Positions 752 to 63,783 of a DNA stretch of 64,000 bases are shown here, piece after piece (position 1 is the first letter of the stretch; the number at the start of each line of letters is the position of its first letter). The stretch comes from Methyloligella sp. Lineage in GTDB: Bacteria; Pseudomonadota; Alphaproteobacteria; Rhizobiales; HXMU1428-3. The DNA lies in NCBI GenBank assembly GCA_021604645.1, contig BQJJ01000004.1:62001-126000 (forward strand). The letters run 5' to 3'. The notes under the pieces are model-generated. The model searched no databases. It was not told where the DNA came from and saw only the letters and a program-made list of their open reading frames with translations. Both the position numbers and the translations under genes were made by a program.

Positions 752-867
752 TTTCTCTCACGGGCTATTCTGCTGCTTCGCTGCAGGCCCTCCGAGGGGC
801 GGCGCTTGCACCGGGCAGCTGCGCTGCCATGTCCCACTGCTTGTGAGAAGCAGTGCTCCTTCTTCGG
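752..867 (+). repeat. Long structured intergenic repeat, copy A
   Basis: Begins one base after the preceding stop codon with the box TTCTCTCACGGGCTATTC, followed by a GC-rich hairpin region, the box CTCCGAGGGGCGGCGC, a GGCAG/CTGCC stem (814-828), a closing stem CACTGCTT (835-842) with AAGCAGTG (848-855), and the end box CTCCTTCTTCGG. The same order of boxes recurs near 7.7, 51.1, 54.8 and 63.7 kb. Not a known family that I can name; rhizobial mosaic palindromic repeats are the nearest concept. Confidence 0.8.
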
Positions 868-899
868 ATCTTGAGATTGTGTTTCTCTCTTTCTCACTC

Positions 900-960
900 T
901 TTCTATCTCAGGCTATTGCTTTTTAGTGGTGCTTTAGGTTGTTCACATGCAACCGCGCCG
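900..960 (+). repeat. Short two-stem hairpin repeat, copy A (with degenerate 5' box)
   Basis: A degenerate 5' box (TCTATCTCAGGCTATT) leads into TTTTTAGTG and then a hairpin at 928-959: outer stem GGTGC/GCGCC (one G-U pair), bulge TTTA, inner stem GGTTG/CAACC, loop containing TTCACATG. It lies between a plus-strand gene and the convergent hlyD-type gene. Confidence 0.7.
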
Positions 961-998
961 AGGCTGATGTTGTTTGTTTTCAGCTTATTTGCTGTCTT

Positions 999-2318
999 TT
1001 ACGGCTCGCGCATGGTGCGGCGGATTTGGTCTGTTAGGGGCTGGAGGAGATATTCAAAGACCAATCTTGATTTTGTTTGAATGAAGACTTCTGCATTCAT
1101 GCCCGGGACTAATTCTATGTTCTTAATTCTTGCCATCTGATCTTTTGGCAGCTCAACATGAACCTTGTAATAAGGAGGTGTGTTGGGTTGATCTTGCGTG
1201 GTTTCTGCAGAAACGAGGGTCACTATGCCAGTGACTTCAGGAGTTGTGCGTTGGTCAAAGGCGCTTAGGTGGACATTTGCTTTTTGGCCTTTAAAGACCT
1301 GATCAATATCTTGCGGGTTGACCCTTGCCGCGAATATTAACTCTGAATTTTGCGGGACGATCATTAATACAGGGTCGCCTGGGGCGACGACACCGCCGAT
1401 TGTGTGTACCGCTAATTGATGAATGATGCCTGATTTTGGCGCGATGATGGTCATTCGCTTTAGTTTATCGGCAAGGGCTGTTCTTTGTTCGGTTAGTTGA
1501 TTGGCCTGTGTTGTTGTTTCTCTTAGCTCAGTTAGGATTGATGAGAGATGATCTTTTTCAACTTGCAGGATTTGAATTTCTGTTTCGCTGATTTGCACTT
1601 TGGTGCGGGCGGTTGAGGCGACAAGTTCACCGGCTTCACCTTGCAACCTGGCTTCTTCTCTTTGCAGTGCCAGTATTCTATTTTGTGGGACAAGGCCTTT
1701 GTCTTGCAGGGATTGTAGGTCGGTTAATTCTTTGCGAATGAACGTTAGTTGGCTTTTTTTCGACGCAACTTGCGCTGTGATACCTTTGATGGCTTCGTTT
1801 AGTTGCTCGGTTCTTTGTTTTAGCTGAGATGTTTGCCCTGAAATAGAAGCTTGGCGCGCTTTGAGTAGATTGGTTTGCCCCTTTAAAATTTTTGCTATTT
1901 CAGCTGAGTTCTCAGCTTTTTTTACAAGCATTTCGGGAAAAGTAATTGTTTGTTTTTTATCTCTCTCTGCGCTGAGGCGTGCTTTTCTAGCGAGTTGTTC
2001 GTTTAGATTAGCGTCGAGTGAGGCAAGGTTGGCGAGGTCTTTTGTTGTGTCTAGGCGCAGTACAGTTTGGCCTGCTTCGACTTTGTCACCATCTTTCACC
2101 AAAATTTCAGAAACAATGCCGCCTTCAAGGTGTTGCACTCTCTTCAAGTTTGATTTTACGGTGATTTGTGCTGAGGCGATAACTGCCCCTTGAAGAGAAG
2201 CAAATGCTGCCCAGCCGCCAATGCCACCAAGTAGTAATAAAAGAAAGAAAAGCCCTAAGCGCTGGTACTTTTTGATTTCTTGATCTGGCGTGTTTTGAGG
2301 TAGGTCTTTGATGCTCAT
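999..2318 (-). CDS. HlyD-family membrane fusion protein of a type I secretion system
   Basis: A 439-residue periplasmic adaptor that links an inner-membrane ABC exporter to a TolC-like outer-membrane channel. It has a short cytoplasmic tail, one membrane helix at about residues 21-40, a barrel-sandwich (biotinyl/lipoyl-like) segment with HLEGGIVSEILVKDGD near residues 65-80, a long Gln/Leu/Lys-rich coiled coil through about residues 85-270, and a C-terminal beta domain ending with LVPGMNAEVFIQT, typical of the PrtE/AprE/HlyD group. Its ATG overlaps the stop of the upstream ABC gene by four bases (ATGA), so the two are translationally coupled. No TolC gene and no recognisable secreted substrate is in the window, so the cargo is unknown. 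Confidence 0.92.
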   Translation of the reverse strand: MSIKDLPQNTPDQEIKKYQRLGLFFLLLLLGGIGGWAAFASLQGAVIASAQITVKSNLKRVQHLEGGIVSEILVKDGDKVEAGQTVLRLDTTKDLANLASLDANLNEQLARKARLSAERDKKQTITFPEMLVKKAENSAEIAKILKGQTNLLKARQASISGQTSQLKQRTEQLNEAIKGITAQVASKKSQLTFIRKELTDLQSLQDKGLVPQNRILALQREEARLQGEAGELVASTARTKVQISETEIQILQVEKDHLSSILTELRETTTQANQLTEQRTALADKLKRMTIIAPKSGIIHQLAVHTIGGVVAPGDPVLMIVPQNSELIFAARVNPQDIDQVFKGQKANVHLSAFDQRTTPEVTGIVTLVSAETTQDQPNTPPYYKVHVELPKDQMARIKNIELVPGMNAEVFIQTKSRLVFEYLLQPLTDQIRRTMREP

Positions 2319-4060
2319 GATTGCACCTCAGTTTGTTTGTCTTGTTGTGTTGCTTTGTCTTGTGGGTTTGCAAGAATTTTTGAGAGCACTTCATCTCTTG
2401 GACCGAATGCCAATTGTTTTCCTTCTCTTAAAAACAAGACTTTGTCACAGGCTTGCAATGCGCTTGGTCTGTGAGCAACGACGACAATGGTTTGGCCGTT
2501 TTGTTTGGCTGTGGCGATGGCCTTTGTTAAAGCTGCTTCACCTTCAGCGTCAAGGTTTGAGTTGGGTTCATCAAGGATGATGTAACATGGGTCATTAAAA
2601 AGGGCTCTTGCCAGACCGATGCGTTGTTTCTGGCCGCCGGATAATTTGTGGCCACCTTCACCAAGGACCGTGTCATAGCCATCTGGTAGAGAAAGGACGA
2701 GCTCGTGAACATTTGCTAATACAGCGGCTTTGACGATTTTTTCCGGGTCTGGTTCTGGTGTGAAGCGGGCGATGTTTTCTTTTAACGTGCCTGAGAGCAG
2801 TTCAACTGATTGGGGGAGGTATCCCATTGCTGGGCCGAGTTGATCCGGGTTCCATTGATCGAGTGTGGCGCCATCGAGGCGAACTGCGCCGCTTAATGGG
2901 CCCCATGTGCCAATAAGCGCACGTGCTAAACATGACTTACCTGCGCCAGTTGGGCCAAGAACGCCTAAGGCTTCGCCTGGTGTTAATGTGAAATCTACTG
3001 ATCTTAGAACCGGGGTTTTGATGCCAGGTGGTGCGATGAATAGTTTTTCAACTGTGATTTTACCTGTTGGCTCTGGTAGTGCCATTTGTGGCTCTGTTAA
3101 ATCTTCGTCGCCAAGGAACATTTTTAATCGATGATAGGCTTTACGGGCGTTGGCGAAATTGCGCCATTGAGCGATGGATTGATCAATGGGGGCTAGCGCT
3201 CTTGTTAGAATGATAGAGGCGGCGATCATTGAACCTGGAGAGATGAGACCTTCAATCACCAAAACTGCACCGACTGCAAGTGTGCAACTTTGCAAAAGCA
3301 TGCGAACTGATTTTGAAAGGGATGTGAAGGTGCTTGAAATGTTTGAAAGGGCAAGATGTGCTTTGCTGGCATCTGCCTGTAATTTTTCCCAGCGACTTAG
3401 AATGTTTTTTTCCATACCCATGGCTTGCAGAATTTCAGCATTTTGCTTGGTTTCTTCAGCAATCATTGAGGTGTGCATGGATTTTGTCATCGCCTCTTCT
3501 GTACGAGGTTTAGTTAGCACTTCGTTGATGATGGAGAGGATGATTAAGAATAAAGTGGCAAGGACTGAAAAGACACCTAAAACCCAATGCAGCATGAAGT
3601 TGACGGCTAAGTAGATGGGTGTCCAGGGTAGGTCAAATAATGTGCTCGGGCCTTGGCTGCCAACGAAGTTTTTTAAGGTTTCTAAATCTCTAATGGGTTG
3701 GGTGCCGACATTTGGTGTTTGTATGACGGAATGTTTGATGGTGGCGCTGAGGCTTGTGTTTCTTAAATCTGTATTTATTTTATCTGCGATGCGGGCGAGG
3801 ATGCGGGTGCGCACCATTTCTAAAAGGCCAAGAAAGAGGAAGAGGGCGGCTATGAGAATGACTAGGGCCGTTAGGGTCGGTAAGCTTTTAGAAGCCAAGA
3901 CACGATCATAGACCTGGAGCATGAACAGTGGACCGGTTAACATTAAGAGATTGATGAAAAGACTGAAAAAACCAACACTTATGAATGCACCGCGGCATTT
4001 TTCTAAAGCGACGGTAACTTTCGGTTTTGAGGTTAGATTGGTTTTTGTCTTACTCATCAC
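2315..4060 (-). CDS. Type I secretion ABC transporter, permease-ATPase (PrtD/AprD-like)
   Basis: A 581-residue half-transporter: an N-terminal ABC membrane domain with about six helices (residues 20-310), then a nucleotide-binding domain with Walker A GPTGAGKS, signature LSGGQKQRIGLARAL, Walker B CYIILDEP and the switch histidine in VVAHRPS. It lacks the N-terminal peptidase-like domain of HlyB/bacteriocin exporters, so it belongs to the PrtD/AprD subgroup that usually exports proteins with an uncleaved C-terminal signal. It forms an operon with the following HlyD gene (four-base overlap). The tail after the NBD is rich in Gln, Lys and Asp. Confidence 0.93.
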   Translation of the reverse strand: MMSKTKTNLTSKPKVTVALEKCRGAFISVGFFSLFINLLMLTGPLFMLQVYDRVLASKSLPTLTALVILIAALFLFLGLLEMVRTRILARIADKINTDLRNTSLSATIKHSVIQTPNVGTQPIRDLETLKNFVGSQGPSTLFDLPWTPIYLAVNFMLHWVLGVFSVLATLFLIILSIINEVLTKPRTEEAMTKSMHTSMIAEETKQNAEILQAMGMEKNILSRWEKLQADASKAHLALSNISSTFTSLSKSVRMLLQSCTLAVGAVLVIEGLISPGSMIAASIILTRALAPIDQSIAQWRNFANARKAYHRLKMFLGDEDLTEPQMALPEPTGKITVEKLFIAPPGIKTPVLRSVDFTLTPGEALGVLGPTGAGKSCLARALIGTWGPLSGAVRLDGATLDQWNPDQLGPAMGYLPQSVELLSGTLKENIARFTPEPDPEKIVKAAVLANVHELVLSLPDGYDTVLGEGGHKLSGGQKQRIGLARALFNDPCYIILDEPNSNLDAEGEAALTKAIATAKQNGQTIVVVAHRPSALQACDKVLFLREGKQLAFGPRDEVLSKILANPQDKATQQDKQTEVQS

Positions 4061-4195
4061 TCTGTCATTTTTTCTTAGTTGTTTTGCTTAGTTTTAATCT
4101 TAATACAGCCTGTAACCTAGTCGTTATAGGGGCTTTATTGAAGTTAAAAATGATTATTTCAAGTATATTATCAGTTAATGGTTTCTATTTCGTGT

Positions 4196-4912
4196 TTACC
4201 CTTTTTTTGGGGGTGGGATTAGCTGTCTGCTGAAGTGATTGAGCGTTTTATATTCTGGCCCGTTATCGACATCACTTAAGGGTTCTGTTGTTGCCCACTT
4301 CGCAGATGGAAGGTTTTTCAACGTGTCATCGTACGTGTGCTCTGTAGACCACCTTACATTTTTAAAGAGATGATTGAGCTTTGGGCTGCGTTTTTGGCCG
4401 ATGATCCAATAACCGCCATCTCCTGAGGGGCCGATGAGGGCATCTTTGTTTTGAAGTTGTTTAAATGCTTTGGCGATATGATTGGCATTGATTTCCGGGA
4501 TATCTGTGCCGATGATTAGAACCGGGCCAGTACCTATTAATAATCCATTTGTCTTATTCTCTGGTTTTCCAATGTTCTTAAATTGTGTGTGCATTCGAGC
4601 GCCTAAATCCCCATGTCTTTGACTTGACCTCTTCAGGCCTTTAGAGGTTTCTTTTGGCCAGAAGGGGAGATTGATTGCGGTGTCCGGGGCGATGGCGATG
4701 TGGGTTTGCCAACGAGGATCTTTCGATAGGCGGGCGATAATGTGGTTGGTTGTGCGCCGATAAAAGGCTGTTGCTGCTACACCACCAATGTCTTTAGAAA
4801 GCCTTGTTTTGACATTTCCTTGGCGGGGTTCTTTGATCATGATGACGAGATGCTGTGTTGTCTTTTGATTTGAAGACGGTTTTGACATGTTTGGCATGGC
4901 TGATCTTTTCAA
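4196..4912 (-). CDS. Small glycosyltransferase, TIGR04282/DUF2064 family
   Basis: A 238-residue GT-A-like protein. The N-terminal MIKEPRQGNVKTRLSKDIG corresponds to the family's characteristic P-x-x-G-x-VKTRL segment; LIIGTDIPEI and GDGGYWIIG follow at about residues 130-170. The family includes proteins placed in arsenosugar biosynthesis clusters, but many members sit in clusters without arsenic genes. It lies 18 bases downstream of the second glycosyltransferase on the same strand, so the two are probably co-transcribed. No ArsM methylase or ArsS radical SAM gene is nearby, so an arsenosugar role is not supported here. The exact start is uncertain; an ATG a few codons in (MPNMSK...) is possible. 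Confidence 0.8.
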   Translation of the reverse strand: MKRSAMPNMSKPSSNQKTTQHLVIMIKEPRQGNVKTRLSKDIGGVAATAFYRRTTNHIIARLSKDPRWQTHIAIAPDTAINLPFWPKETSKGLKRSSQRHGDLGARMHTQFKNIGKPENKTNGLLIGTGPVLIIGTDIPEINANHIAKAFKQLQNKDALIGPSGDGGYWIIGQKRSPKLNHLFKNVRWSTEHTYDDTLKNLPSAKWATTEPLSDVDNGPEYKTLNHFSRQLIPPPKKG

Positions 4913-4930
4913 GTGAGAGATTTGATATGA

Positions 4931-5656
4931 TTAAGACGTGCTGGATTTTGTATAAATTTGGTAGATTTTTTCTGGTGGTAGGCCGCGATAATAGGCGGCG
5001 AGGCAGTAGAGATTTCTTGTGCTGCGTTTCAAGTAGCCTTCTTTTTTGTATTTTTCGGCGCTTGTAAAGGCTCTTGATTGTAAAATTTTTACAGGGGCGG
5101 GAAGGCGGCGGATGATGTCTGTATCTTCCATAATTGGAAAGTTCGGATAGCCGCCACATGCTTCATAGGTTTGCTTGGAGATTAGCAGGCCTTGATCTCC
5201 ATAGGGAAGAGAGAAAAGTGAGCAGCGTAAAGCGACGAGTTTAGTCAATATTTGGGGAGCAAGGCCTTTATCTTTTAGTGAGAACTTGAAGGCAGCTGCA
5301 TTTGGAGCGGTATTAGGTGTAGGTTCTTCAGGTGTTTTTTGATCTTCTGCTTTGATGAACTTGGTTACTTCAATGTGCCAATCTTCTTCAAGCTCGGTAT
5401 CTGAATGAAGAAAGAGCATCCATTGGTTTTTGGCAGCGTTTGCGCCAGCGTTTAATTGGGGGCCGCGCCCTTTTGTTTCCGGAGTGAGTATCTTTGCGCC
5501 TGCCTCATCTGCCATCTCCACTGTGTCATCAGTTGAGCCTCCATCCACTATGATGACCTCGTTTATAGCACCTTCGAGTAGGGCTGGCATGAGCGAGGCA
5601 AAAGTGGCGGGTAATTCTTTCGCTGAATTTAGGGTCGGTATAATGATTGATAGCAT
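4931..5656 (-). CDS. Family 2 glycosyltransferase, TIGR04283-like
   Basis: A 241-residue GT2 enzyme from the ATG at 5656. It begins directly with MLSIIIPTLNSAKELP, the canonical first strand of the GT-A fold; EVIIVDGGSTDDTVEMA follows, then the metal-binding region FLHSDTEL. A TTG at 5692 would add 12 residues, but ATG at 5656 gives the family's usual N-terminus. The family partner TIGR04282 is the next gene, and the pair is often adjacent in genomes. Together they probably transfer a sugar in making a small glycoconjugate; substrate and product are not visible. Transcription runs away from the divergent radical SAM gene. Confidence 0.85.
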   Translation of the reverse strand: MLSIIIPTLNSAKELPATFASLMPALLEGAINEVIIVDGGSTDDTVEMADEAGAKILTPETKGRGPQLNAGANAAKNQWMLFLHSDTELEEDWHIEVTKFIKAEDQKTPEEPTPNTAPNAAAFKFSLKDKGLAPQILTKLVALRCSLFSLPYGDQGLLISKQTYEACGGYPNFPIMEDTDIIRRLPAPVKILQSRAFTSAEKYKKEGYLKRSTRNLYCLAAYYRGLPPEKIYQIYTKSSTS

Positions 5657-5706
5657 GGAGGGTACATTATCTATTGTTGTTTTGTTGAGCAAGTAAACTT
5701 AGGGGC

Positions 5707-5722
5707 TAGGGTCTAGACCCTA
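5707..5722. promoter_or_regulatory. Perfect 16-bp palindrome in a divergent promoter region
   Basis: TAGGGTCTAGACCCTA is self-complementary across all 16 bases and lies between the divergent glycosyltransferase and radical SAM genes. It could be an operator. A related but imperfect TAGGGTCTACCCC occurs at 19448, upstream of the YdjM-like gene. No regulator can be assigned. Confidence 0.35.
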
Positions 5723-5859
5723 TGTTTAGTTATTCATCATTAAGAATGTGTTGGTAACCGTTTGTCGTGTTATATTTATACGCGAATGTTCTTGATATGT
5801 TCTCATTGAGATTGTACGCTTGTTTTGTTACAGAATGATTATTAACAGAGACGTTTTTT

Positions 5860-6951
5860 ATGAAAAAGACAAGCTTGATTGATCCAAACCGTTTTCGGGG
5901 GCGTGGGACTTCTAGCAATGATGTTGGACGGTTTGAGGTATTTGATAGGGACCTTTATGACGATGGCTGGGATGGGCTAGATAACCTTCCTCCCTTTAAA
6001 ACAGAAGTTCGTCATGAAGAGAGCACGTCTATTATCACTCAAAATAAATCACCTGATATTCCTTTTGACCGTTCGCTTAATCCGTATCGGGGTTGTGAGC
6101 ATGGCTGTCCTTATTGTTATGCGCGGCCAAGTCATTCTTATTGGGGGATGTCTCCGGGGCTTGATTTTGAAACGAAATTGACAGCGCGGGTTAATGCGGC
6201 TGAATTGCTGGAGGAGGAGCTCTCAAAGCCTTCTTATCTTTCTAAGTCGATTTCTCCGATTGCGCTGGGTGGTAACACAGATCCATACCAGCCGATTGAG
6301 CGGGAGTATAAACTCACGCGGCAAATTTTAGAGGTTTTACTTGAGGCGAAGCATCCTTTGACTATTGTGACTAAGTCAGTTTTGGTGCTTCGGGACTTGG
6401 ATTTATTAGCTGAATTGGCTAGGCAAAATTTAGTGCTTGTAGCTTTATCGATCACATCTTTGGATAAAGTTTTAACGAGGCAAATGGAGCCCCGTGCCAG
6501 TGCGCCCCATTTGCGTTTAAAGGCCTTGGATGAATTGCACAAGGCAGGCGTGCCGACAATGACGATGATGGCGCCGATGATCCCGTCTTTAAATGATCAT
6601 GAGATGGAGGGGATTATGGAAGCTGTTCTTACGCGTGGATGCACTGAGGCGAATTATGTTTTGCTTCGACTGCCACATGAAATTAAAGAGTTGTTTCGTG
6701 AGTGGCTTTTGCGTGAAGTGCCTGACCGAGCGGCTAGAGTGATCTCATTGGTGCAATCAATGCGGGGCGGGCAAGATTATAAGGCTGAGTTTGGAACGCG
6801 CATGCGGGGTGAGGGGCCTTATGCTGATTTGTTATCGCATCGTTATAAGTTAGCACTAAAGCGGCTTGGGTTTAATAAAGAACCTATCTCTCTTCGAACG
6901 GATTTATTTGTTCCGCCAGTGCCAAAGGGTGGACAGATGAGATTGTTTTAA
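5860..6951 (+). CDS. PA0069-family radical SAM protein (SplB-like)
   Basis: A 363-residue radical SAM enzyme related to spore photoproduct lyase (COG1533). The cluster motif is CEHGCPYC with cysteines at residues 79, 83 and 86, in the context NPYRGCEHGCPYCYARPSH, which is diagnostic for the PA0069 family. A later segment LGGNTDPYQPIE matches the conserved strand after the cluster. The reaction is not established for this family, and a role in DNA lesion repair is inference only. In many alphaproteobacteria this gene sits directly upstream of rnhB, as here (51-base gap). Confidence 0.92.
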   Translation: MKKTSLIDPNRFRGRGTSSNDVGRFEVFDRDLYDDGWDGLDNLPPFKTEVRHEESTSIITQNKSPDIPFDRSLNPYRGCEHGCPYCYARPSHSYWGMSPGLDFETKLTARVNAAELLEEELSKPSYLSKSISPIALGGNTDPYQPIEREYKLTRQILEVLLEAKHPLTIVTKSVLVLRDLDLLAELARQNLVLVALSITSLDKVLTRQMEPRASAPHLRLKALDELHKAGVPTMTMMAPMIPSLNDHEMEGIMEAVLTRGCTEANYVLLRLPHEIKELFREWLLREVPDRAARVISLVQSMRGGQDYKAEFGTRMRGEGPYADLLSHRYKLALKRLGFNKEPISLRTDLFVPPVPKGGQMRLF

Positions 6952-7002
6952 ATTCTTTGCGTTTTGTGATATTGGCAGTGATTGATATGACAGGCGGGTA
7001 AA

Positions 7003-7665
7003 ATGGCAAAAAAAGAACAAAAAATACTTTCTTCATCTGAAGTAAAAGGTGGGCCGGATTTTCAGTTTGAAACGGAAGCCATGGAAAAATTTGGTGGTTG
7101 TGTTGCTGGCACTGACGAGGCGGGGCGCGGTCCGTGGGCTGGGCCAGTTGTGGCGGGGGCTGTGATCCTCAATCCTGATGATATTCCGGCTGGATTGAAT
7201 GACTCTAAGAAATTAACTGAAGCTAAACGAGAAACTTTGTTTGAGCTGATGACAGAGATGGCGGCAGAAGAGCGGCTTTATATTGGGGTTGGGATTGCTG
7301 ATGTAGTGAAGATTGACAGTGATAATATTTTAAAAGCATCGCTTTGGGCCATGGGGCAATCGGTTGCGGACCTTTCTGTTAGGCCGCGTTCTGTTTTGGT
7401 GGATGGGAATAAGTTACCTGAGTTGCCTATGCCAGCGCTGGCTTTGGTGAAAGGTGATGCCCGATCATTGTCGATTGCGGCGGCGTCTATCATCGCTAAA
7501 GTGACGAGAGACCGGATGATGGTGGCGCTTTCGCAAGAGTTTCCTGCTTATAAATGGGCGTCAAATAAAGGCTATGGAACAAAGGATCACCAGCAAGCTT
7601 TGGCTGAGCATGGGGTGACGATGCATCACAGGCAGTCTTTTAAGCCGATTAAAGCTTTGCTTTAA
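7003..7665 (+). CDS. rnhB: Ribonuclease HII
   Basis: A 220-residue enzyme that cuts RNA in RNA-DNA hybrids and removes single ribonucleotides from DNA. Seen directly: GTDEAGRGPWAGPVVAGAV (Asp-Glu catalytic pair), LNDSKKLT, VLVDGN with the third acidic residue, ASIIAKVTRDRMM, and the C-terminal YGTKDHQQALAEHGVT with an acidic residue. The length is normal for alphaproteobacterial RnhB. An AGGCGGG ribosome site sits just before the ATG. A structured repeat (copy B) starts three bases after the stop codon. Confidence 0.97.
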   Translation: MAKKEQKILSSSEVKGGPDFQFETEAMEKFGGCVAGTDEAGRGPWAGPVVAGAVILNPDDIPAGLNDSKKLTEAKRETLFELMTEMAAEERLYIGVGIADVVKIDSDNILKASLWAMGQSVADLSVRPRSVLVDGNKLPELPMPALALVKGDARSLSIAAASIIAKVTRDRMMVALSQEFPAYKWASNKGYGTKDHQQALAEHGVTMHHRQSFKPIKALL

Positions 7666-7667
7666 TA

Positions 7668-7861
7668 TTCTCTCACGGCTATTCCAAGCGCTTTTAGTTG
7701 CACTTCAGATGCCCACCAGCATCCGTGCTTTAGCGCTTGGGCCCTGCGAGATGTGGCGCTTTTTATGCGATCAGCTTATCCGTACTCGCTCCGTTCGGGC
7801 TGATCTTGTGCGCCAGGCTTCGTCATGTCACTCAGACCGAAGTGGGCTGAGCTCCTTCTTC
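7668..7861 (+). repeat. Long structured intergenic repeat, copy B, with a short hairpin module nested inside
   Basis: Opens with TTCTCTCACGGCTATT three bases after the rnhB stop. The first hairpin arms are CCAAGCGC (7684-7691) and GCGCTTGG (7733-7740). Between them sits a complete short module (7700-7728: outer stem GCAC/GTGC, bulge TTCA, inner stem GATGC/GCATC, loop CCACCA). Copy G at 63.6 kb has the same arms closed by only six bases. Downstream are an ATCAGC/GCTGAT arm pair, the closing stem CTCAGACC (7831-7838) with GGGCTGAG (7844-7851), and CTCCTTCTTC. Confidence 0.8.
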
Positions 7862-7881
7862 ATATGATGAGTTATTCTCTA

Positions 7882-7898
7882 TTTTCTCTCACGGCTAT
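7882..7898 (+). repeat. Solitary 5' box of the repeat family
   Basis: TTTTCTCTCACGGCTAT repeats the opening box of the long element 20 bases after copy B ends, without the rest of the element. It looks like a remnant or the start of a degraded second unit. The remaining bases up to 8029 are AT-rich and hold only the promoter region of the next small gene. Confidence 0.5.
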
Positions 7899-8029
7899 AC
7901 TTTATTTCCCGTAGTTGGTTTTGAGATGGAGAGTGAGATATGTGATTTAGGTGATGGTTTAGGGTTTATTAGCTTTATTGGTATAAATTTAACGGATCTA
8001 TTTAACACTCCTTAACATTTGGAGGGGAT

Positions 8030-8230
8030 ATGAGTGCTTCAATTGCAGCGTCAGCTGTGGCAGCGCAACAGTCGCAAACCCAATTAGCGGTGGCGGCTAA
8101 GATCGCGAAATTTAATGCGTCAGCTGAGAGGTCAGTTGTTGACCTTGTGAATGCTGCTCAAGAAAATTTACAGGCAGTAACTAGTTCAGCCGGACCTGGT
8201 AAAGGTGCCGTTTTAGATATTTCTGTCTGA
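8030..8230 (+). CDS. Small YjfB-like protein (putative motility protein family)
   Basis: A 66-residue alanine- and glutamine-rich protein with a strong ribosome site (GGAGGGG) five bases before its ATG. The pattern SxxAxxxQ-SQTQLAVAAKIAKFNAS followed by VVDLVNAAQENLQ resembles the short YjfB/putative motility proteins of proteobacteria, which have a helical first half and a short Gly/Ala tail ending in a beta-like VLDISV. Function is not known, and the assignment rests on pattern memory only. It faces the Gly-rich gene at 8576 across a shared terminator. No flagellar gene is in the window. Confidence 0.55.
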   Translation: MSASIAASAVAAQQSQTQLAVAAKIAKFNASAERSVVDLVNAAQENLQAVTSSAGPGKGAVLDISV

Positions 8231-8241
8231 GCTAATAAAAA

Positions 8242-8290
8242 ACGGGTCTGAAATGGCGCGTTTTCATGTGTCTTTTCAGGCCCGTCTTAT
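8242..8290. terminator. Bidirectional terminator between convergent small genes
   Basis: Stem ACGGGTCTGAAA (8242-8253) pairs with TTTCAGGCCCGT (8274-8285) with one G-U pair. A-rich sequence lies on the left and a T-rich tail on the right, serving both the plus-strand gene ending at 8230 and the minus-strand gene ending at 8298. Confidence 0.8.
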
Positions 8291-8297
8291 ATTTTAA

Positions 8298-11261: not shown

Positions 11262-11266
11262 TAGGG

Positions 11267-15980: not shown

Positions 15981-16077
15981 TTTCTCTTACGGCTATTGCT
16001 TTTTAGTGGCGCTTTAGGTTGCCCACAAAGCATCCGTATTTTTAATTGTGCTTCAGATGCCCACAAAGCATCCGCAC
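15981..16077 (+). repeat. Structured intergenic repeat, copy C (5' box plus two short hairpin modules)
   Basis: TTTCTCTTACGGCTATTGC leads into TTTTTAGTGGCGC, then an imperfect short module (16008-16036, GGTTGC/GCATCC arms) and a well-paired second one (16048-16077: outer stem GTGC/GCAC, bulge TTCA, inner stem GATGC/GCATC, loop CCACAAA). It lies between convergent cobB and the HxlR-type gene and ends at that gene's stop codon. Confidence 0.75.
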
Positions 16078-38514: not shown

Positions 38515-38590
<76 letters not shown>

Positions 38591-51050: not shown

Positions 51051-51204
51051 TTCTCTCACGGGCGATGGCAGCGAAGCTGCCGCCCTACGAGGTGCAGCAC
51101 TAAGTGCTGACGGCCTGCGGCCTACGTTTTTCGTTCCCTGCTGATTATGAGATATAAAAGTGCTTGAAGCTAGCTATAATCAGCGGTGCGTTACTCCTTC
51201 TTCG
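51051..51204 (+). repeat. Long structured intergenic repeat, copy E
   Basis: TTCTCTCACGGGCGAT follows the TAA stop with no gap. Hairpins: GGCAGC-GAA-GCTGCC (51067-51081), CAGCAC-TAA-GTGCTG (51095-51109), GGCC-TGC-GGCC (51112-51122), GCTGATTAT (51140-51148) with ATAATCAGC (51176-51184), then CTCCTTCTTCG (51194-51204). The terminator comes only at 51257, so the element lies in the transcribed 3' untranslated region. Confidence 0.8.
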
Positions 51205-53690: not shown

Positions 53691-53733
53691 ACGTATTTGT
53701 GGCTGTTAAATCACGGAACTTTGAAAACTCTAG

Positions 53734-54080: not shown

Positions 54081-54172
54081 AGTAAAGACTCTCTGTTTAA
54101 GTAGAGATACTTTGTTTGCGAATACATCTTGCATAACGTGCGGCCTTGCAATCGTGAGGAACGAAGCCTGTG

Positions 54173-54730
54173 ATGAGACAAACGCGTTCACCGGATGCTT
54201 GCCCGGCACTGGTTCTTAATGCGGATTTCAGACCGCTTAGTTATTATCCTTTGTCATTATGGAGTTGGCAAGAGGCAGTGAAATCTGTTTTTCTTGACCG
54301 GGTCAATATTATACAGACCTATGACAAGCAAGTGCATAGCCCTTCTCTTAATATGAACTTACCAAGTGTGGTTGCGCTGAAGAATTATGTGAGCCCCGCT
54401 CGATATCCAGCGTTCACACGTTTTAATTTGTTTTTGCGCGATAAGTTTTCTTGTCAATATTGCGGGAGTGCGGATGACCTTACTTTCGATCATGTTATTC
54501 CGCGCTCGAAAGGTGGCTTGACGCGCTGGGACAATGTTGTTGCCGCTTGTGCGCCTTGTAATTTGCGCAAGAGCAATATGATGCCTGAAGTTGCTGGTAT
54601 GATCCCAATGCAAAAACCATTTCGGCCAACAGTTTTTCATCTTCATAAAAATGGTCGTTTATTCCCGCCGAATTACTTGCATGAAAGCTGGCTTGATTAT
54701 CTCTATTGGGATACTGAGCTTGAGGAATAG
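54173..54730 (+). CDS. HNH endonuclease
   Basis: A 185-residue nuclease of the type widespread in alphaproteobacteria. After LVLNADFRPLSYYPLSLWSW, the HNH zinc fold is CQYCG ... LTFDHVIPRSKGGLTRWDNVVAACAPCNLRKSN: C-x2-C, DH, N and C-x2-C are all present. RPTVFHLHKNGRLFPPNYLHESWLDYLYWD is the usual tail. Start: ATG 54173 after GAGGAA, overlapping an in-frame GTG at 54170. Its role is probably DNA repair or defence; not established. Repeat cluster F starts after the stop codon. Confidence 0.93.
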   Translation: MRQTRSPDACPALVLNADFRPLSYYPLSLWSWQEAVKSVFLDRVNIIQTYDKQVHSPSLNMNLPSVVALKNYVSPARYPAFTRFNLFLRDKFSCQYCGSADDLTFDHVIPRSKGGLTRWDNVVAACAPCNLRKSNMMPEVAGMIPMQKPFRPTVFHLHKNGRLFPPNYLHESWLDYLYWDTELEE

Positions 54731-55071
54731 TTTTTGCGCTTCAGTTGCCCACTACGCAACCGCGCTGTTATATCTCACGGGCTATTCCGCGACTGCATGG
54801 CAGCGCGGGCCCTCCGATGGGGCGCGCAATATCTTTTGAAGCCCTATCGGCTTCAAAATGAGCGGGCTTTGCTTTCGCTTCGCCATGTCCTGGCGCTGAA
54901 GTGGCGCCACTCCTTCTTTTTTTGTCTCATGGCTATTCTTTTTTAGTGGCGCTTCAGGTTACCCACCAGCAACCGCGCTACTAAAGCTCATAGATCTACG
55001 AGGGGCGGTGCTAGGCACCGGACACCTCTGGCGTCATGTACGTGCTCTGAAGGAGAGCACTCCCTTCTTCG
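54731..55071 (+). repeat. Structured intergenic repeat, cluster F (three units)
   Basis: Unit 1: short hairpin 54736-54765 (outer GCGC/GCGC, bulge TTCA, inner GTTGC/GCAAC). Unit 2, 54770-54918: 5' box TCTCACGGGCTATT, stem CGCG-a-CTGC/GCAGCGCG (54788-54807), closing stem TGGCGC/GCGCCA (54891-54909), CTCCTTCTT. Unit 3, 54924-55071: box, short hairpin 54942-54985 with an 11-bp outer stem, CGGTGC/GCACCG (55006-55020), GTGCTCT/AGAGCAC (55042-55060), CTCCCTTCTTCG. From 55072 to 55223 no gene is seen. Confidence 0.82.
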
Positions 55072-58019: not shown

Positions 58020-58175
58020 ATGACTTTCTAGGTACGGCTCTTGTGAATGAATGTCTTCTTAAATTGAATAGGTTAATAATTGTTAGAATTAGTCTAGCAT
58101 AAACCTGTTTCTTTTCGCTAGAGAACTCTTAATGTCTTAAGCCTTTGGATAATTTTTTCTTTAAAGGTTTCTCTT

Positions 58176-61001
58176 TTATGGCTTTTGTTGAGAGATTGCT
58201 TTTAATTTATACAGCAAGTCCAGGGCGTTTTTAGGCGTTAATTCATCTGGATTTAGGTTTGATAGCTCGTCTTGTAATTTATCGCCAATAGGGTTTGGTT
58301 TGGCTGTTTCTTCTGTCTCTTCTTCATTTTCAGGGAGTTCCATTGAGAAAAGGGGCAGATCTTCCAATTGGTTTATGCCACCAGATTTCTGATTTTTATT
58401 CTCTAGAACATTGAGGACTTCATTCGCTCGTTTAATGACTGCTTTGGGAAGGCCTGCGAGCTTTGCTACCTGGATACCATAAGAACGGTCAGCAGCTCCC
58501 ATAATGACACGGTGGAGGAAGACGATTTCATCATTCCATTCTTTCACCTCGATGGTGGCGTTTGTCACGCCGGCTAACTTTTCAGACAGGGTTGTTAGCT
58601 CATGATAATGGGTTGCAAAGAGGGCGCGGGTTTTGCTGATGTTATGTAGATATTCAACAGCGGCCCAGGCAATTGAGAGGCCGTCAAAGGTGGCAGTTCC
58701 GCGGCCAATTTCATCGAGGATGACCAGGGATTTCTCAGTTGCTTGATTGAGAATGGCGGCGGTTTCGACCATTTCTACCATGAAGGTTGAGCGTCCACGA
58801 GCAAGGTCATCTGAAGCGCCTACTCTTGAAAAGAGCCTGTCGATCAAACCGATATGAGCGCTGGCTGCGGGAACGAAACTTCCCATCTGAGCCATGATGG
58901 CGATGAGGGCATTCTGCCTGAGGTAGGTTGATTTACCAGCCATGTTGGGGCCGGTGAGGAGCCAAATGTTGGCAGCGCCTTCTTTGTTGTTGTTTTTGGT
59001 TAGACCGCAATTATTTTCAATAAAGGGGCCGGATTTAGATTTGCGTAGTGCTTGCTCGACAACCGGGTGGCGGCCATTTTTAATCGTGAAGGTGCGGCTT
59101 TGATCGATGATGGGCCGGGTGTAGTTTTCTTCTTCGCTTAACAAAGAAAGGCTTAAAATCACATCGAGGTCTGCCAGACTTTCAGCGCACTGGCTGATTT
59201 TGTCACCTGCTTTTTCGGCATCTGAGCTGAGTTCAGAAAAGAGGCTGAGCTCGATGGCAAGGGCTCTTTCCGCGGCTTGAGTGATTTTTGATTCTGTCTC
59301 GATTAGTTCTTCGGTATTGAAGCGAACATTGTTCGCAAGGGTTTGGCGGTGACGAAAGGTTTCACTTAATGGGCCGGTGAGAAGTTGATTGGAATTTAGC
59401 TGGGTGACTTCAACGAAAAATCCAAATTGGTTGTTGTGTCTGACTTTAAGAGATTTGATGCCGGTTGTTTCTCTATAAGTGGCTTGGAGGTTTGCGATGA
59501 TGGTGCGGCTTTGATCGCGTAATGTGCGTTGTTCGTCTAGGCCTTCATGATTGCCTTCTTTTATGAAACCGCCGTCCCTGGCTTGTAAGGGCAAGTCTTC
59601 TGCTAGGTATCTGTCTAATTTATCTTTGAGAGAGCCTGAGGCAAAGAGCAGTGATTTACTGATTTGTTTTATGGTCTCTGGTAGGTGCTCTTGTTTGAAA
59701 TGTTCGAGTTCCTTTAAAACTTCATCGGCAACAAGCAGGCCTGAGCGAATTGCTCCTAAGTCTTTTGGCCCGCCTCGTTTTAAAGAAAGGCGGGAGAGGG
59801 CGCGGGCCATGTCTGGTGTGCGGCGCAGGGTCTTGCGGATGGTATCTCTTGCTGCACTGTTATTATTAAAAAATTCAAGGCTGTTCAGACGGTTATTAAT
59901 TGCAGAGACATCATTTAGCGGTGCGCTTATTTGAGCGGCTAATTGGCGAGATCCGGCTCCTGTTACTGTTCTGTCAAGTGCATCAAAGAGGCTGCCTTTC
60001 TTGGTCATTCGTGTTGATTTTATAAGCTCGAGATTGCCTCTTGTCGCTGCGTCGATGACCATGGTCGCGTTTTCAATTGAACGACTTGGTGGTCTAACAA
60101 GTGGACATTTGCCGATTTGAGTCAGCTCAACATATTTCAGCAACGCGCCTATGGCGGCTAGTTCGCCGCGCCCATAAGTACCGTATCCTTCAAGTTCAGT
60201 GACTTTGAGAGCTGCTTTTAAAGCGGCCTCACCACCAAGGCTGTTAAAGTAAGCGCTTGGAACAGGGGTTTGTACAGCTGGTTGATGGTCTAATATATGG
60301 CGAATGTGGGCTTCATTTTTTAAATTATCTGCAATGAGGAGCTCGCTTGGTGCGAGCTTTGTTAGTTCGCCGCTTAGATCTGAACTTGTGACTTCGCTTA
60401 CCAAAAATTGTCCTGTTGAAATATCAAGACTGGCAAGAGAAAAAAGGTTTTCTTTTCTTGTTTCGTGTGCGGGGTTTTTAAAGAGGGATGTAAGGAAATT
60501 GTTTGAGCCAGGTTCCAATAGGGTGTCTTCAGTGAGTGTGCCTGGTGTCACTAGGCGGGTGACATCTCTTTGAACAACAGCTTTGGATCCTCTTTTTTTT
60601 GCCTCTGCCGGATCTTCCGTTTGTTCAACCACAGCGACTTTAAATCCAGCACGAATGGCTTTTTGTAAATATTCGTCAGCTACTTTTAAAGGGACGCCAG
60701 CCATTGGGATGTCTTTGCCCTGATAGGTGCCGCGTTTGGTGAGGGTTAGTCCAAGTTTTTCAGACGCTTCGATGGCATCATCGAAGAATAGTTCATAGAA
60801 ATCACCGAGTTGATAAAAGAGAATATAACCTGGGTTAACGGCTTTTAATTCTAGGTATTGAGCGATGACGGGTGAGGGCTTTTCAGCTGCTTTAGCTTTT
60901 TTGTTCTCTTTTTGCTTCATTTTATCATTAATTTCAGGAGAACTTTTGCTTTCGATGCCTTTAGTTTCATTGCCTTGGTTTTCTATGTTTTGTGTACTCA
61001 C
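58176..61001 (-). CDS. mutS: DNA mismatch repair protein MutS
   Basis: A 941-residue mismatch-binding ATPase. The mismatch-recognition motif GDFYELFFDDA is intact near residue 70; the ATPase has Walker A LLTGPNMAGKSTYLRQN, and VILDEIGRGTATFDGLSIAWAAVEYL with Walker B and the signature. An extra Lys/Glu-rich N-terminus of about 40 residues precedes the core. The GTG at 61001 is assumed; ATG at 60923 (MKQKENK) is also possible, as neither has a good ribosome site. Terminates before glnD. Confidence 0.95.
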   Translation of the reverse strand: MSTQNIENQGNETKGIESKSSPEINDKMKQKENKKAKAAEKPSPVIAQYLELKAVNPGYILFYQLGDFYELFFDDAIEASEKLGLTLTKRGTYQGKDIPMAGVPLKVADEYLQKAIRAGFKVAVVEQTEDPAEAKKRGSKAVVQRDVTRLVTPGTLTEDTLLEPGSNNFLTSLFKNPAHETRKENLFSLASLDISTGQFLVSEVTSSDLSGELTKLAPSELLIADNLKNEAHIRHILDHQPAVQTPVPSAYFNSLGGEAALKAALKVTELEGYGTYGRGELAAIGALLKYVELTQIGKCPLVRPPSRSIENATMVIDAATRGNLELIKSTRMTKKGSLFDALDRTVTGAGSRQLAAQISAPLNDVSAINNRLNSLEFFNNNSAARDTIRKTLRRTPDMARALSRLSLKRGGPKDLGAIRSGLLVADEVLKELEHFKQEHLPETIKQISKSLLFASGSLKDKLDRYLAEDLPLQARDGGFIKEGNHEGLDEQRTLRDQSRTIIANLQATYRETTGIKSLKVRHNNQFGFFVEVTQLNSNQLLTGPLSETFRHRQTLANNVRFNTEELIETESKITQAAERALAIELSLFSELSSDAEKAGDKISQCAESLADLDVILSLSLLSEEENYTRPIIDQSRTFTIKNGRHPVVEQALRKSKSGPFIENNCGLTKNNNKEGAANIWLLTGPNMAGKSTYLRQNALIAIMAQMGSFVPAASAHIGLIDRLFSRVGASDDLARGRSTFMVEMVETAAILNQATEKSLVILDEIGRGTATFDGLSIAWAAVEYLHNISKTRALFATHYHELTTLSEKLAGVTNATIEVKEWNDEIVFLHRVIMGAADRSYGIQVAKLAGLPKAVIKRANEVLNVLENKNQKSGGINQLEDLPLFSMELPENEEETEETAKPNPIGDKLQDELSNLNPDELTPKNALDLLYKLKAISQQKP

Positions 61002-61313
61002 CGGGGGTTATCTCGCTTTAGGGTCTTTTTCTTAACTATCTTTGAATGGGAACTGACATTATAGAGGGTTCTTCAAAATTACCATAGATAATGGAAATGG
61101 TTTGGGGATTTACTTTGAGACTGTTGTTTTTTGATGGTCCCTTATTCTTCTAATGTAGGGCTATCTTCTTTAAAATTGTTGCTTATATTTTTGCGACAAT
61201 TCTAAAAAAGACCTGTTGTCGTTCAAAATTCTTCGTACTATGGTCTACTTATAACTACGTAGTATCCTTCCATATCAATTTAAGTCACATCAATTTAGGT
61301 TCTTTAAAAAATA
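61002..61313. other. Divergent promoter region mutS / maeB
   Basis: 312 bases without a gene. It contains the 10-base palindrome ACTACGTAGT (61254-61263), 50 bases before maeB. No repeat element or strong hairpin is present. Confidence 0.5.
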
Positions 61314-63584
61314 ATGCCGCAAAAAAACTCTAAAAATAACTTTACGGACCAAGAAGCTTTACAATTCCACGCTGGTAACAAACCAGGCAAGCTTGAAATT
61401 ACACCAACCAAACCAATGGCAACTCAGCGTGATTTGAGTTTGGCTTATTCACCAGGTGTGGCCGTGCCTGTTTTGGCGATCTCAGAAGATGAGCGGACTG
61501 CGTATGATTATACCAACAAAGGAAATATGGTTGGGGTTATCTCTAATGGTACGGCGATTTTGGGACTGGGTAATTTAGGGGCACTTGCCTCTAAGCCGGT
61601 GATGGAGGGGAAATCTGTTCTCTTTAAGCGGTTCGCAGATGTTGACTCAATTGATTTGGAAGTCTCAACAGAAGATGTTGATGAGTTTATCAATTGTGTG
61701 CGCTATTTGGGGCCAGCGTTTGGTGGTATTAACCTGGAAGATATTAAAGCGCCGGATTGTTTTATCATTGAGCAAAAATTACGCGAATTGATGAACATTC
61801 CTGTTTTTCATGATGATCAGCATGGTACGGCGATTATCGCGACCGCTGGGTTGATTAACGCACTGCATTTAAACGGCAAAGATATAAAAGACATTAAGCT
61901 TGTTTGTTCTGGCGCTGGGGCTGCTGCGATTTCATGCGTTGAATTGGCTAAGTCTAAGGGTGTGCCGCACGAGAATGTTCTGATGATTGATCGCAAGGGT
62001 GTGATCTATAAGGGGCGTGAAGGTGGATTGGATCAGTGGAAGTCAGCACATGCTGTTGAAACTGATAAGCGCACATTGGAAGAAGCGCTTGAAGGGGCTG
62101 ATGTATTTTATGGACTTTCGGCTGCTGGAGTAGTGAGCCAGGATATGGTTAAGGGTATGGCTGAGAACCCGATTATTTTTGCTATGGCGAACCCGGATCC
62201 AGAGATTACGCCTGAAGATGTGCTTGCTGTTCGCCCTGATGCAATTATGGCGACAGGGCGTTCTGACTATCCGAACCAGGTGAATAATGTACTTGGTTTT
62301 CCTTATATTTTCCGTGGTGCGCTTGATGTGCATGCAAGCGAGATTAATGAGGCAATGAAAATCGCGGCGGCTGAAGCACTTGCGACCCTGGCAAGAGAAG
62401 ATGTGCCTGATGATGTGGCAGCAGCTTATGGTGGGCAACGTCCGAAATATGGACCTGAGTATATTATCCCTGCGCCATTTGATCCTCGTTTGATCAGCCA
62501 TGTGCCGCCAGCAGTTGCACGTGCTGCAATGGATACAGGGGTAGCGCGGCGCCCGATTATTGATATGGAAGATTACACCGCGAAACTTTCAGCTCGGCTT
62601 GATCCGGTTGCTGGTTGGTTGCATGGCATTTTCCAAAAAGTGAAGAAAAACCCACGCCGGGTTGTTTTTGCTGAGGGTGAAGAAGAGCAAGTTATTCGCG
62701 CAGCGAATACTTTTTATAATATGGGTCTTGGGCATCCTGTGCTTGTTGGCCGTGAAGAAGGAATTTTAGAAGGTTTTAAGAGCGCTGGGATTGAATATCG
62801 CGACGTGTTTGAAATTCAAAATTCACGAGAATCTGAGCATAATGAGCTTTATGCAGATTATCTCTATCAACGTTTGCAGCGGAAAGGTTATGTGCGCCGT
62901 GATTGTTTGAGAATGGTAAATAATGATCGGATTATCTTTGCGTCTTGTATGGTAGCGCACGGTCATGCGGATGCGCTTGTTGCGGGTGTGACGCGAAACT
63001 GGTCTATCGCTTTTGAAGATATTCAAAAAGTATTAGACGCAAAAGAAGGCTCTTGTCCGATTGGTGTTTCGCTTGTTCTTAACAGAGGCCGGGCTGTGTT
63101 GGTGGCGGATACTTCTGTGCATGATATGCCAACGGCTGAAGAATTAGCTGATATTGCTGAAGAGGCTGCGAAAGTTTCTTGTCGCCTTGGCGCTGACCCG
63201 CGAGTGGCGATGCTTGCTTATTCAACATTTGGTCACCCTGAAGGGGAACGTTCGAACCGTTTGAGGGAAGCTGTGAAATTACTTGATCAGCGCGGTGTTG
63301 ATTTTGAGTATGATGGTGAGATGTCTGCTGAGGTTGCGCTGAATGCGGAAGCTATGGAGCAATATCCGTTTTGCCGTTTAACTGACACGGCGAATGTGTT
63401 GATTATGCCAGCGTTCCACTCTGCAAGTATTGCGACACAAATGTTGCAAGAATTATCGGAGGGCACTGTTATTGGGCCGCTATTGGTTGGATTAGAGAAA
63501 TCTGTTCAGCTTGTGCCGCTTGGTGCGAAAGATAGAGACATTGTGAACATGGCAGCGCTGGCTGCTTATGATGTGAACGGGTAG
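61314..63584 (+). CDS. maeB: NADP-dependent malic enzyme with phosphotransacetylase-like C-terminal domain
   Basis: A 756-residue multimodular malic enzyme converting malate to pyruvate and CO2 with NADP reduction. N-terminal domain: YSPGVAVPVLAI, FKRFADVDSIDLEV, DDQHGTAIIATAGLINAL; NAD(P) domain with CSGAGAAAISCVELAKS. From about residue 430 comes a phosphate acetyltransferase-like domain (VVFAEGEEEQVIRAANTF ... ADTANVLIMPAFHSASIATQMLQ), lacking catalytic function and thought to sense acetyl-CoA. Divergent from mutS. Repeat copy G follows. Confidence 0.96.
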   Translation: MPQKNSKNNFTDQEALQFHAGNKPGKLEITPTKPMATQRDLSLAYSPGVAVPVLAISEDERTAYDYTNKGNMVGVISNGTAILGLGNLGALASKPVMEGKSVLFKRFADVDSIDLEVSTEDVDEFINCVRYLGPAFGGINLEDIKAPDCFIIEQKLRELMNIPVFHDDQHGTAIIATAGLINALHLNGKDIKDIKLVCSGAGAAAISCVELAKSKGVPHENVLMIDRKGVIYKGREGGLDQWKSAHAVETDKRTLEEALEGADVFYGLSAAGVVSQDMVKGMAENPIIFAMANPDPEITPEDVLAVRPDAIMATGRSDYPNQVNNVLGFPYIFRGALDVHASEINEAMKIAAAEALATLAREDVPDDVAAAYGGQRPKYGPEYIIPAPFDPRLISHVPPAVARAAMDTGVARRPIIDMEDYTAKLSARLDPVAGWLHGIFQKVKKNPRRVVFAEGEEEQVIRAANTFYNMGLGHPVLVGREEGILEGFKSAGIEYRDVFEIQNSRESEHNELYADYLYQRLQRKGYVRRDCLRMVNNDRIIFASCMVAHGHADALVAGVTRNWSIAFEDIQKVLDAKEGSCPIGVSLVLNRGRAVLVADTSVHDMPTAEELADIAEEAAKVSCRLGADPRVAMLAYSTFGHPEGERSNRLREAVKLLDQRGVDFEYDGEMSAEVALNAEAMEQYPFCRLTDTANVLIMPAFHSASIATQMLQELSEGTVIGPLLVGLEKSVQLVPLGAKDRDIVNMAALAAYDVNG

Positions 63585-63610
63585 GGAAAGAGGTTCTCTC
63601 GGGGTCTTTT

Positions 63611-63783
63611 CTCTCTCACGGCTATTCCAAGCGCATAATCGCGCTTGGGTCTCCGAGGGGCGGTGCTTTTCTTGCGATCAGCTTATCCGTACTCGCTACG
63701 CTCCGTTCGGGCTGATATTGTGCACCGGGCTTCGCGAAGCGCTACGCCATGTCCTGACGCCGAAGTGGCGTCACTCCTTCTTC
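63611..63783 (+). repeat. Long structured intergenic repeat, copy G
   Basis: CTCTCTCACGGCTATT, first hairpin CCAAGCGC-ATAATC-GCGCTTGG (63627-63648), box CTCCGAGGGGCGGTGC pairing with a later GCACCG around an inner ATCAGC/GCTGAT stem, palindrome CTTCGCGAAG, closing stem TGACGCC (63755-63761) with GGCGTCA (63767-63773), and CTCCTTCTTC. Best-preserved full copy. No gene lies from 63784 to 63970. Confidence 0.82.

What the first reader, a model, noticed from the sequence alone, without database searches (positions are those of the whole stretch)
752..63783. New modular structured repeat family with compensatory hairpins
Units near 0.75, 7.7, 51.1, 54.8, 54.95 and 63.6 kb share the order: box TCTCTCACGG-CTATT, a variable hairpin, box CCGAGGGGCGG (clear in copies A, G and F unit 3, weaker elsewhere), a closing hairpin, and CTCCTTCTTC. 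The closing stems differ completely in sequence but stay paired: CACTGCTT/AAGCAGTG, TGGCGC/GCGCCA, GTGCTCT/AGAGCAC, TGACGCC/GGCGTCA, GCTGATTAT/ATAATCAGC, with CTCAGACC/GGGCTGAG showing one mismatch. Loops are often GAAG-like. Such covariation implies selection for structure, or a mobility mechanism that needs hairpins. I know no named family with these boxes; rhizobial ABC-type mosaic palindromes are the nearest analogy.
Basis: partly seen in the sequence, partly recalled or inferred. Interest (0 to 1): 0.8.

Follow-up and report, generated by a model that had tools for sequence, protein, structure and literature searches.

The report
Replication-oriented DNA hairpin repeats that swap parts
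An uncultured alphaproteobacterium and its sister species carry a dispersed short DNA repeat made of several hairpins that almost always points the same way relative to chromosome copying and whose hairpins are replaced one at a time between copies, which looks like an unrecognised way for small repeats to move or mix during DNA replication.

Summary
Observation confirmed, and part of something larger. The six window units belong to a family of ~113-nt elements (conserved boxes, four variable hairpins, a mini-hairpin): at least 150 copies here, matches in all 8 genus genomes, no Rfam match in what was scanned. Stem covariation is massive. New: (1) 146 of 150 copies share their contig's majority strand and 144 of 150 lie on the strand with leading-type skew, although genes there split 379:376 and copies between co-directional genes point with them 34 and against them 39 times; an unrelated repeat, B, shares the polarity (51:3 away from A). 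(2) Here hairpins of one copy are statistically independent (149 haplotypes in 150), while arms of one hairpin are tightly linked; relative G002 keeps some linkage between neighbours. (3) At 38 orthologous sites in G002 single hairpins were replaced (11-15 sites per hairpin). (4) Changes in kept stems are mostly one-sided, with no overall G-T excess. So the covariation reflects hairpins exchanged as units more than selection on an RNA. Best reading: mosaic hairpin repeats propagated and mixed through single-stranded lagging-strand template at forks; enzyme unknown (no Y1 transposase or reverse transcriptase found in G002 or G003). Anatomy, polarity and modularity are shown; mechanism is inferred.

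The parts
754..866 (+). element A, complete and without insert: box TCTCTCAC, P1 with TATT bulge, mini-hairpin CCGAGGGG, P3, P4, CATGTCC, P5, CTCCTTCTTCG
   Evidence: R1 98.9 bits; starts 2 nt after the ORF 59-751; in relative G002 the orthologous copy has P1, P4 and P5 replaced and P3 changed
7669..7862 (+). element A with repeat B in P1 and repeat C in P3
   Evidence: R1 66.7 bits; sequence
7700..7728 (+). nested repeat B (GCACTTCAGATGCCCACCAGCATCCGTGC)
   Evidence: pattern
7769..7805 (+). nested repeat C (GATCAGC...GCTGATC)
   Evidence: pattern
7885..7900 (+). 5' fragment of element A (TCTCTCACGGCTATAC)
   Evidence: exact box, no R1 match there; also present in G002
51052..51204 (+). diverged element A with a long P5 loop
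   Evidence: R1 41.1 bits
54735..54765 (+). repeat B, free-standing, just before the next unit
   Evidence: pattern
54771..54920 (+). diverged element A, first of a tandem pair
   Evidence: R1 47.9 bits
54923..55071 (+). element A with repeat B in P1, second of the tandem pair
   Evidence: R1 71.4 bits
54948..54979 (+). nested repeat B
   Evidence: sequence and pattern core 54953-54975
63612..63784 (+). element A with repeat C in P3
   Evidence: R1 90.8 bits
63676..63716 (+). nested repeat C
   Evidence: pattern

Best explanation
Element A is a short dispersed DNA repeat of about 113 nt: conserved boxes separated by variable hairpins (P1, P3, P4, P5) and a mini-hairpin. SHOWN: at least 150 copies; nearly all on the strand with leading-type T/G skew, which by general knowledge is the strand that serves as lagging-strand template; an unrelated repeat, B, has the same polarity; B and C can sit inside A; between two species hairpins have been replaced as whole units at conserved sites, and hairpins of one copy are close to independent while the arms of one hairpin are not. 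INFERRED: A is exposed as single strand on the lagging-strand template at each replication; its non-palindromic boxes, which make the element directional, are what an enzyme or annealing reaction recognises; copies spread and mix there, a stalled or cut hairpin being replaced from another copy through the short boxes flanking it. Covariation is then a by-product of copying intact palindromes, and existing stems decay by ordinary mutation. The enzyme is unknown.
For: Polarity: 146 of the 150 best copies follow their contig's majority strand; 144 of 150 lie on the strand with positive T+G skew at third codon positions averaged over both gene strands, the sign agreeing in 17 of 18 contigs. Independent of genes: 379 against 376 genes on the two strands; copies: 34 co-directional, 39 anti-directional, 52 convergent, 9 divergent, 12 inside mechanical ORFs, 4 at a locus edge; gaps of 60 bp or more as background 150, 147, 88, 104. 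G002: 145 of 150 follow the contig majority (counted by eye). Repeat B: 149:4 in all, 51:3 more than 250 nt from any A box or tail. Modularity: all 10 module pairs at shuffled level in this genome (z -1.5 to 1.6), 149 haplotypes in 150, same with 130 copies after removing near-identical ones (z -1.7 to 1.2), arms of one hairpin z 20-28. Mismatched hairpins are rare also when found by boxes alone, blind to pairing: P1 2 of 77, P5 3 of 131 below 60% Watson-Crick, against 49% and 57% for arms from two copies (model-chosen copies: P1 5 of 140, P3 1 of 143, P4 10 of 149, P5 3 of 150). Replacement in place: 38 one-to-one orthologous pairs, swapped P1 13, P3 11, P4 15, P5 15; boxes b0 2, b2 7, b4 2, b5 3; alignments.
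Against: No mobilising enzyme found: Y1_Tnp in 1 of 8 genus genomes (this one, two genes beside an unrelated repeat), RVT_1 in 2 of 8 (G004, G006); G003 is only 78% complete. No clean empty site: 12 candidates aligned, all with tandem copies or diverged flanks. Repeat C cannot count as independent: 18:0 in all, but none lies more than 250 nt from an A box or tail. In G002 neighbouring modules keep linkage (P3-P4 z 4.3, P4-P5 z 4.2, P1-P3 z 2.0 after removing near-identical copies). Swapped modules have a near copy elsewhere in the same genome no more often than kept ones (P1 19 of 26 against 35 of 50, P5 22 of 30 against 35 of 46, P3 10 of 22 against 48 of 54, P4 16 of 30 against 41 of 46), so the donor copy is not demonstrated. 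Deletion between tandem copies could make chimeras without replication. GT:AC counts differ by helix (P1 51:23, P3 15:33, P4 28:28, P5 16:43). 66 copies start within 60 nt after a co-oriented stop, against 25 whose 3' end lies that near an opposing stop, so position is not wholly independent of genes. The 38 pairs hold 20 double Watson-Crick changes inside kept stems, which selection or hairpin correction could explain.
Confidence: 0.55

Rival explanations
1. A structured RNA (3' UTR element, sRNA or cis-regulator) kept by selection on base pairing.
For: Strong covariation; conserved unpaired boxes; many copies follow stop codons; divergent gaps are avoided (9 copies; 104 of 489 background gaps).
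Against: Orientation ignores transcription (34 against 39); no overall G-T excess (110 GT, 127 AC); in kept stems of orthologues 64 one-sided against 27 two-sided changes, with A-C gained or lost against Watson-Crick 32 times and G-T 14 times; no Rfam match in what was scanned.
Confidence: 0.1
2. REP/REPIN-like non-autonomous element moved by a Y1 HUH (RAYT) transposase on single-stranded DNA.
For: Lagging-strand template is the known target of IS608 and ISDra2 (abstract and passages of PMC6006769); relatives outside the genus include inverted pairs with the boxes outermost (3 of 13 loci by exact boxes; some others with a degenerate partner by eye); exceptions to polarity are mostly 3'-facing inverted pairs (3 of 4 here, 4 of 5 in G002, one pair shared by descent).
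Against: No Y1_Tnp in 7 of 8 genus genomes including copy-rich G002, G003 and G006; the two Y1 genes here stand beside a different repeat; no GTAG in the conserved columns; stems vary freely.
Confidence: 0.15
3. A selected replication-polar signal (AIMS/KOPS-like), wrong-way copies being purged.
For: Polarity of about 97% with balanced gene orientation; AIMS are leading-strand-biased sequences proposed to be under selection (abstract of PMC5993296).
Against: R1 matches range from 23 to 149 in six relatives, the search scoring at most 150; sequence-unrelated repeat B shares the polarity away from A (51:3).
Confidence: 0.1
4. Module mixing is only unequal exchange or deletion within tandem arrays plus correction of imperfect palindromes by intrastrand template switching, without mobility.
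For: Tandem copies occur; some orthologous differences involve them; the donor of swapped hairpins is not demonstrated.
Against: Both outer hairpins can change while P3 and P4 are kept (C4:57011); dispersal and polarity remain unexplained.
Confidence: 0.18

Closest known systems
REP / BIME / REPIN (RAYT-associated)
   Same: Short intergenic palindromic repeats in many copies, some in inverted pairs; single-strand mechanism proposed there (passages of PMC6006769 and PMC3733652)
   Different: Four hairpins with freely varying stems, no GTAG foot, no RAYT beside them, extreme replication polarity
CGTC-tagged palindromic repeats
   Same: Palindromic repeats without a dedicated transposase, some in alphaproteobacteria (passages of PMC3733652)
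   Different: No constant CGTC end; several hairpins, modular
Pneumococcal BOX/RUP/SPRITE
   Same: Small interspersed repeats; BOX is modular (passages of PMC3049150)
   Different: Leading-strand share there is 60.8, 60.9 and 63.3%, mirroring gene bias, against about 97% here with balanced genes
Mitochondrial GC clusters and hairpin elements
   Same: Mobile hairpin-type repeats, by the titles and abstracts listed (PMC4478555, PMC2800124)
   Different: Organelle genomes; not compared in sequence
Rhizobial RIME/ABC mosaic elements
   Different: Sequences not at hand; relationship untested

Membership tests
REP (RAYT-associated) | GTAG (or GT[AG]G) at the foot of the hairpin | tested here: not met
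   absent from the conserved columns of 53 copies
REP (RAYT-associated) | RAYT gene flanked by copies | tested here: not met
   Y1_Tnp found only in G000 of 8 genus genomes, two genes; no exact A box beside them, AATTACGGTGACAGT-type repeats instead
REP (RAYT-associated) | many intergenic palindromic copies | tested here: met
CGTC-tagged repeats | CGTC at one end | tested here: not met
   CGTC occurs in the 3' arm of one P4 type (left arm GACGCC, 46 of 150) and one P5 type (TGACGCC, 22 of 150), not as a constant end
Rfam RNA family | covariance-model match | tested here: not met
   only a tRNA in the window at gathering score; in 9.2 kb with three copies only two chance-level hits at E <= 1
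Replication-polar signal (AIMS/KOPS) | strand bias with replication | tested here: met
Replication-polar signal (AIMS/KOPS) | bias rises toward the terminus; functional need | not tested
   origin and terminus were not located in the 27-contig assembly
BOX-type repeat | boxA-boxB(n)-boxC order with repeated inner module | tested here: not met
   fixed order of different hairpins, no repeated inner module in A1, by eye
Rhizobial RIME/ABC | sequence of the A, B, C palindromes | not testable with these tools
   no published sequence was at hand; the one paper searched for it had no passage

The most novel reading that the evidence does not exclude
The hairpin, not the whole repeat, is the unit of exchange: bacterial replication forks shuttle short hairpin modules (A's hairpins and B) between dispersed copies through single-stranded lagging-strand template, by an as yet unnamed activity, so that hairpins 20-40 nt apart assort almost freely and RNA-like covariation arises with no RNA.
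Probability: 0.33. Interest if true: 0.85.

Novelty: new variant of a known kind. Interest (0 to 1): 0.67.

Why it matters
It gives a worked case in which strong covariation in a bacterial repeat need not mean a structured RNA, which matters for RNA discovery pipelines. A repeat whose direction follows replication in about 97% of copies with no transcription bias would be a natural record of fork-linked insertion, and hairpin-by-hairpin replacement at conserved sites makes the mechanism testable in strain pairs.

Tried and rejected
Rfam: no relevant match (window at gathering score; 9.2 kb at E <= 1). Y1 transposase and reverse transcriptase as drivers: not found in several copy-rich genomes. 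HNH gene 54170-54730 beside two copies: an HNH protein by Pfam; its IscB match is far below the NCBIfam cut-off (43.6 against 175 bits). Terminator hairpins as insertion target: stems of 8 bp or more in the last 50 nt upstream of 14 of 148 copies scanned, against 2 in a control stretch and 5 downstream, a minor trend. Viral origin: 0 exact matches to the 24-base pattern in viral contigs. Clean empty sites: not obtained. Near copies elsewhere as proof of a donor: no difference from kept modules, so dropped. Literature: the box letters occur in 25 papers, of which the 20 listed are on unrelated subjects by title; repeat searches listed no family with these boxes, judged from listings, plus passages of PMC3733652, PMC6006769 and PMC3049150 and the abstract of PMC5993296; absence from print is not proved. 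A term search in PMC2573895 gave no passage on RIME.

Selection notes: A1 took copies with both end boxes, a [CA]CGAG core and up to 122 nt (58 found; 5 odd ones left out by me, 53 aligned), so inserted and diverged copies are under-represented. A2 is the best 150 of 197 matches and is chosen by a model that rewards pairing; the pairing-blind check is. Counts on A2 and A3 lean towards the model structure. The ortholog table uses the 38 of 59 sites with a one-to-one partner. Gene context rests on mechanical ORFs of 90 aa or more. The strand called leading was set from A's majority per contig.

Full report
What is there. The window is C4:62001-126000 of a 3.57-Mb, 27-contig draft genome. The six units are six copies of one element, here called A. 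From 53 copies its consensus is TCTCTCAC-GGC(TATT)[P1]GCC-T-NCGAGGN-G-[P3 CGGNNN..CCG]-[P4]-ATGTCC-[P5]-CTCCTTCTTCG. Immediately outside, T stands at position -2 in 97% of 149 copies and the downstream side is T-rich.

Structure. On A1 the structure I named pairs 92.5% of 1581 cells against 75.9% after shuffling and 31-40% when the partners are slid; 23 of 31 pairs show double changes against 16.5 in shuffles; the number of further pair types (52 against 49.6) is not above shuffles. The mini-hairpin closing pair also covaries: C-G 61 and A-T 31 of 103 own copies with the motif, 46 and 18 of 69 in G002. Selection of A1 rows required the end boxes and a core motif, not pairing.

Copy number and range. 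TCTCTCACGG: 164 in the genome, 3 for the reversed control. R1: 150 matches at E <= 0.01, only 150 of 801 candidates being scored. In the other seven genus genomes R1 gives 150, 149, 143, 135, 46, 32 and 23 matches at E <= 0.001 under the same cap. The short box pattern occurs in 12 of 297 order genomes, 7 of them in the genus (own included; G005 has none) and 5 in two other genera. Of 13 loci from outside the genus (some of them the same place fetched twice), 3 show 3'-facing inverted pairs by exact boxes, others single or tandem boxes; some single ones have a degenerate inverted partner by eye.

Polarity. 146 of 150 copies follow their contig's majority strand and 145 of 150 in G002 (by eye). 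Third-codon-position skew, averaged over both gene strands so that gene direction cancels, puts 144 of 150 copies on the T+G-rich strand; 17 of 18 contigs agree, the exception being thinly sampled C7 with two copies. By general knowledge this is the leading-strand sense, i.e. the lagging-strand template. Genes in the same loci are 379 to 376. Copies between co-directional genes point with them 34 times and against them 39 times, whereas pneumococcal repeats mirror gene bias at 60.8-63.3%. Repeat B shares the polarity, 149:4 in all and 51:3 more than 250 nt from any A box or tail; repeat C is 18:0 but was never found that far from A, so it adds nothing. Exceptions are mostly partners in 3'-facing inverted pairs: 3 of 4 here, 4 of 5 in G002, one pair being shared by descent.

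Modularity. Five modules (P1, box2, P3, P4, P5) are independent at shuffled level in all ten combinations and 149 of 150 haplotypes are distinct; keeping 130 copies after removal of near-identical ones changes nothing. The two arms of each hairpin are strongly linked (z 20-28). G002 shows residual linkage between neighbours (P3-P4 z 4.3, P4-P5 z 4.2). Hairpins with mismatched arms are few, also in a search by boxes that is blind to pairing: P1 2 of 77 and P5 3 of 131 here, 1 of 46 and 3 of 80 in G002, against 39-57% for arms taken from two copies.

Exchange seen between species. G002 is 94% identical in one flanking gene. Of 150 own copies, 59 have an orthologous site in the fetched G002 stretches and 38 a one-to-one partner. 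Hairpins are replaced at 11-15 of 38 sites each, singly or together, while box b0 is identical at 31 and b4 at 27; boxes were scored as swapped at 2 (b0), 7 (b2), 2 (b4) and 3 (b5) sites. At C4:62754 (window 754) the upstream flank is conserved up to and into the first box, P1, P4 and P5 differ, and so does about 130 nt after the element; at C4:57011 P1 and P5 differ while P3 is kept and P4 differs only slightly; at C4:167645 repeat C is present here and absent in G002. Swapped modules have near copies elsewhere in their genome about as often as kept ones or less, so which copy served as donor is not shown.

Why RNA is unlikely. Over 150 copies stems hold 3966 Watson-Crick, 110 G-T, 127 A-C and 188 other cells; an RNA should tolerate G-T. 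In kept stems of orthologues there are 64 one-sided and 27 two-sided changes, 20 of the latter between Watson-Crick pairs; changes between Watson-Crick and A-C number 32, G-T 14. Helices differ among themselves, P1 leaning to G-T and P3 and P5 to A-C, which I cannot explain; related copies are not independent counts.

Mechanism. A palindrome looks the same on both strands, so polarity must come from the non-palindromic boxes acting on one strand. Lagging-template polarity, hairpins, nesting (B inside 16 and C inside 15 of 150 copies) and unit replacement together point to single-stranded DNA at forks. Which activity does it is open: Y1 and reverse transcriptase searches do not supply one.

Verdict. 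The family, its polarity and its modularity are well supported; the fork mechanism is the best inference, not shown.

Noticed in passing
G000 contigs; C3 between about 277 and 323 kb: Third-position GC skew falls into two classes: absolute value about 0.26-0.45 in the loci of C2, C4, C8, C11, C12, C13, C18 and most of C3, and 0-0.2 in C1, C5, C6, C7, C9, C10, C14, C15, C19, C20, while AT skew keeps a sign that fits the element strand in nearly all loci; C3 seems to change class within the contig. Cause unknown.
   Followed up: partly
L209:11400-15710 (G000:C1): Two Y1 transposase (RAYT-like) genes beside a different repeat, AATTACGGTGACAGT.
   Followed up: partly
window 54170-54730: HNH endonuclease gene directly before two element copies; weak similarity to the HNH part of IscB, below cut-off.
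   Followed up: partly
L071:5169-5399, L091:6691-6962, L106:5751-5980: Cohaesibacter-type and Dive100 relatives carry the box and P1/P3-like hairpins at both outer ends of an inverted pair, like a REPIN or MITE.
   Followed up: partly
window 16052-16074: A free-standing repeat B outside any A element.
   Followed up: no
window 38515-38587: A tRNA gene, the only Rfam match of the window at gathering score.
   Followed up: no
own copies, upstream side: Many copies begin 2-15 nt after a co-oriented stop codon of a mechanical ORF, and 14 of 148 follow a hairpin stem of 8 bp or more.
   Followed up: partly
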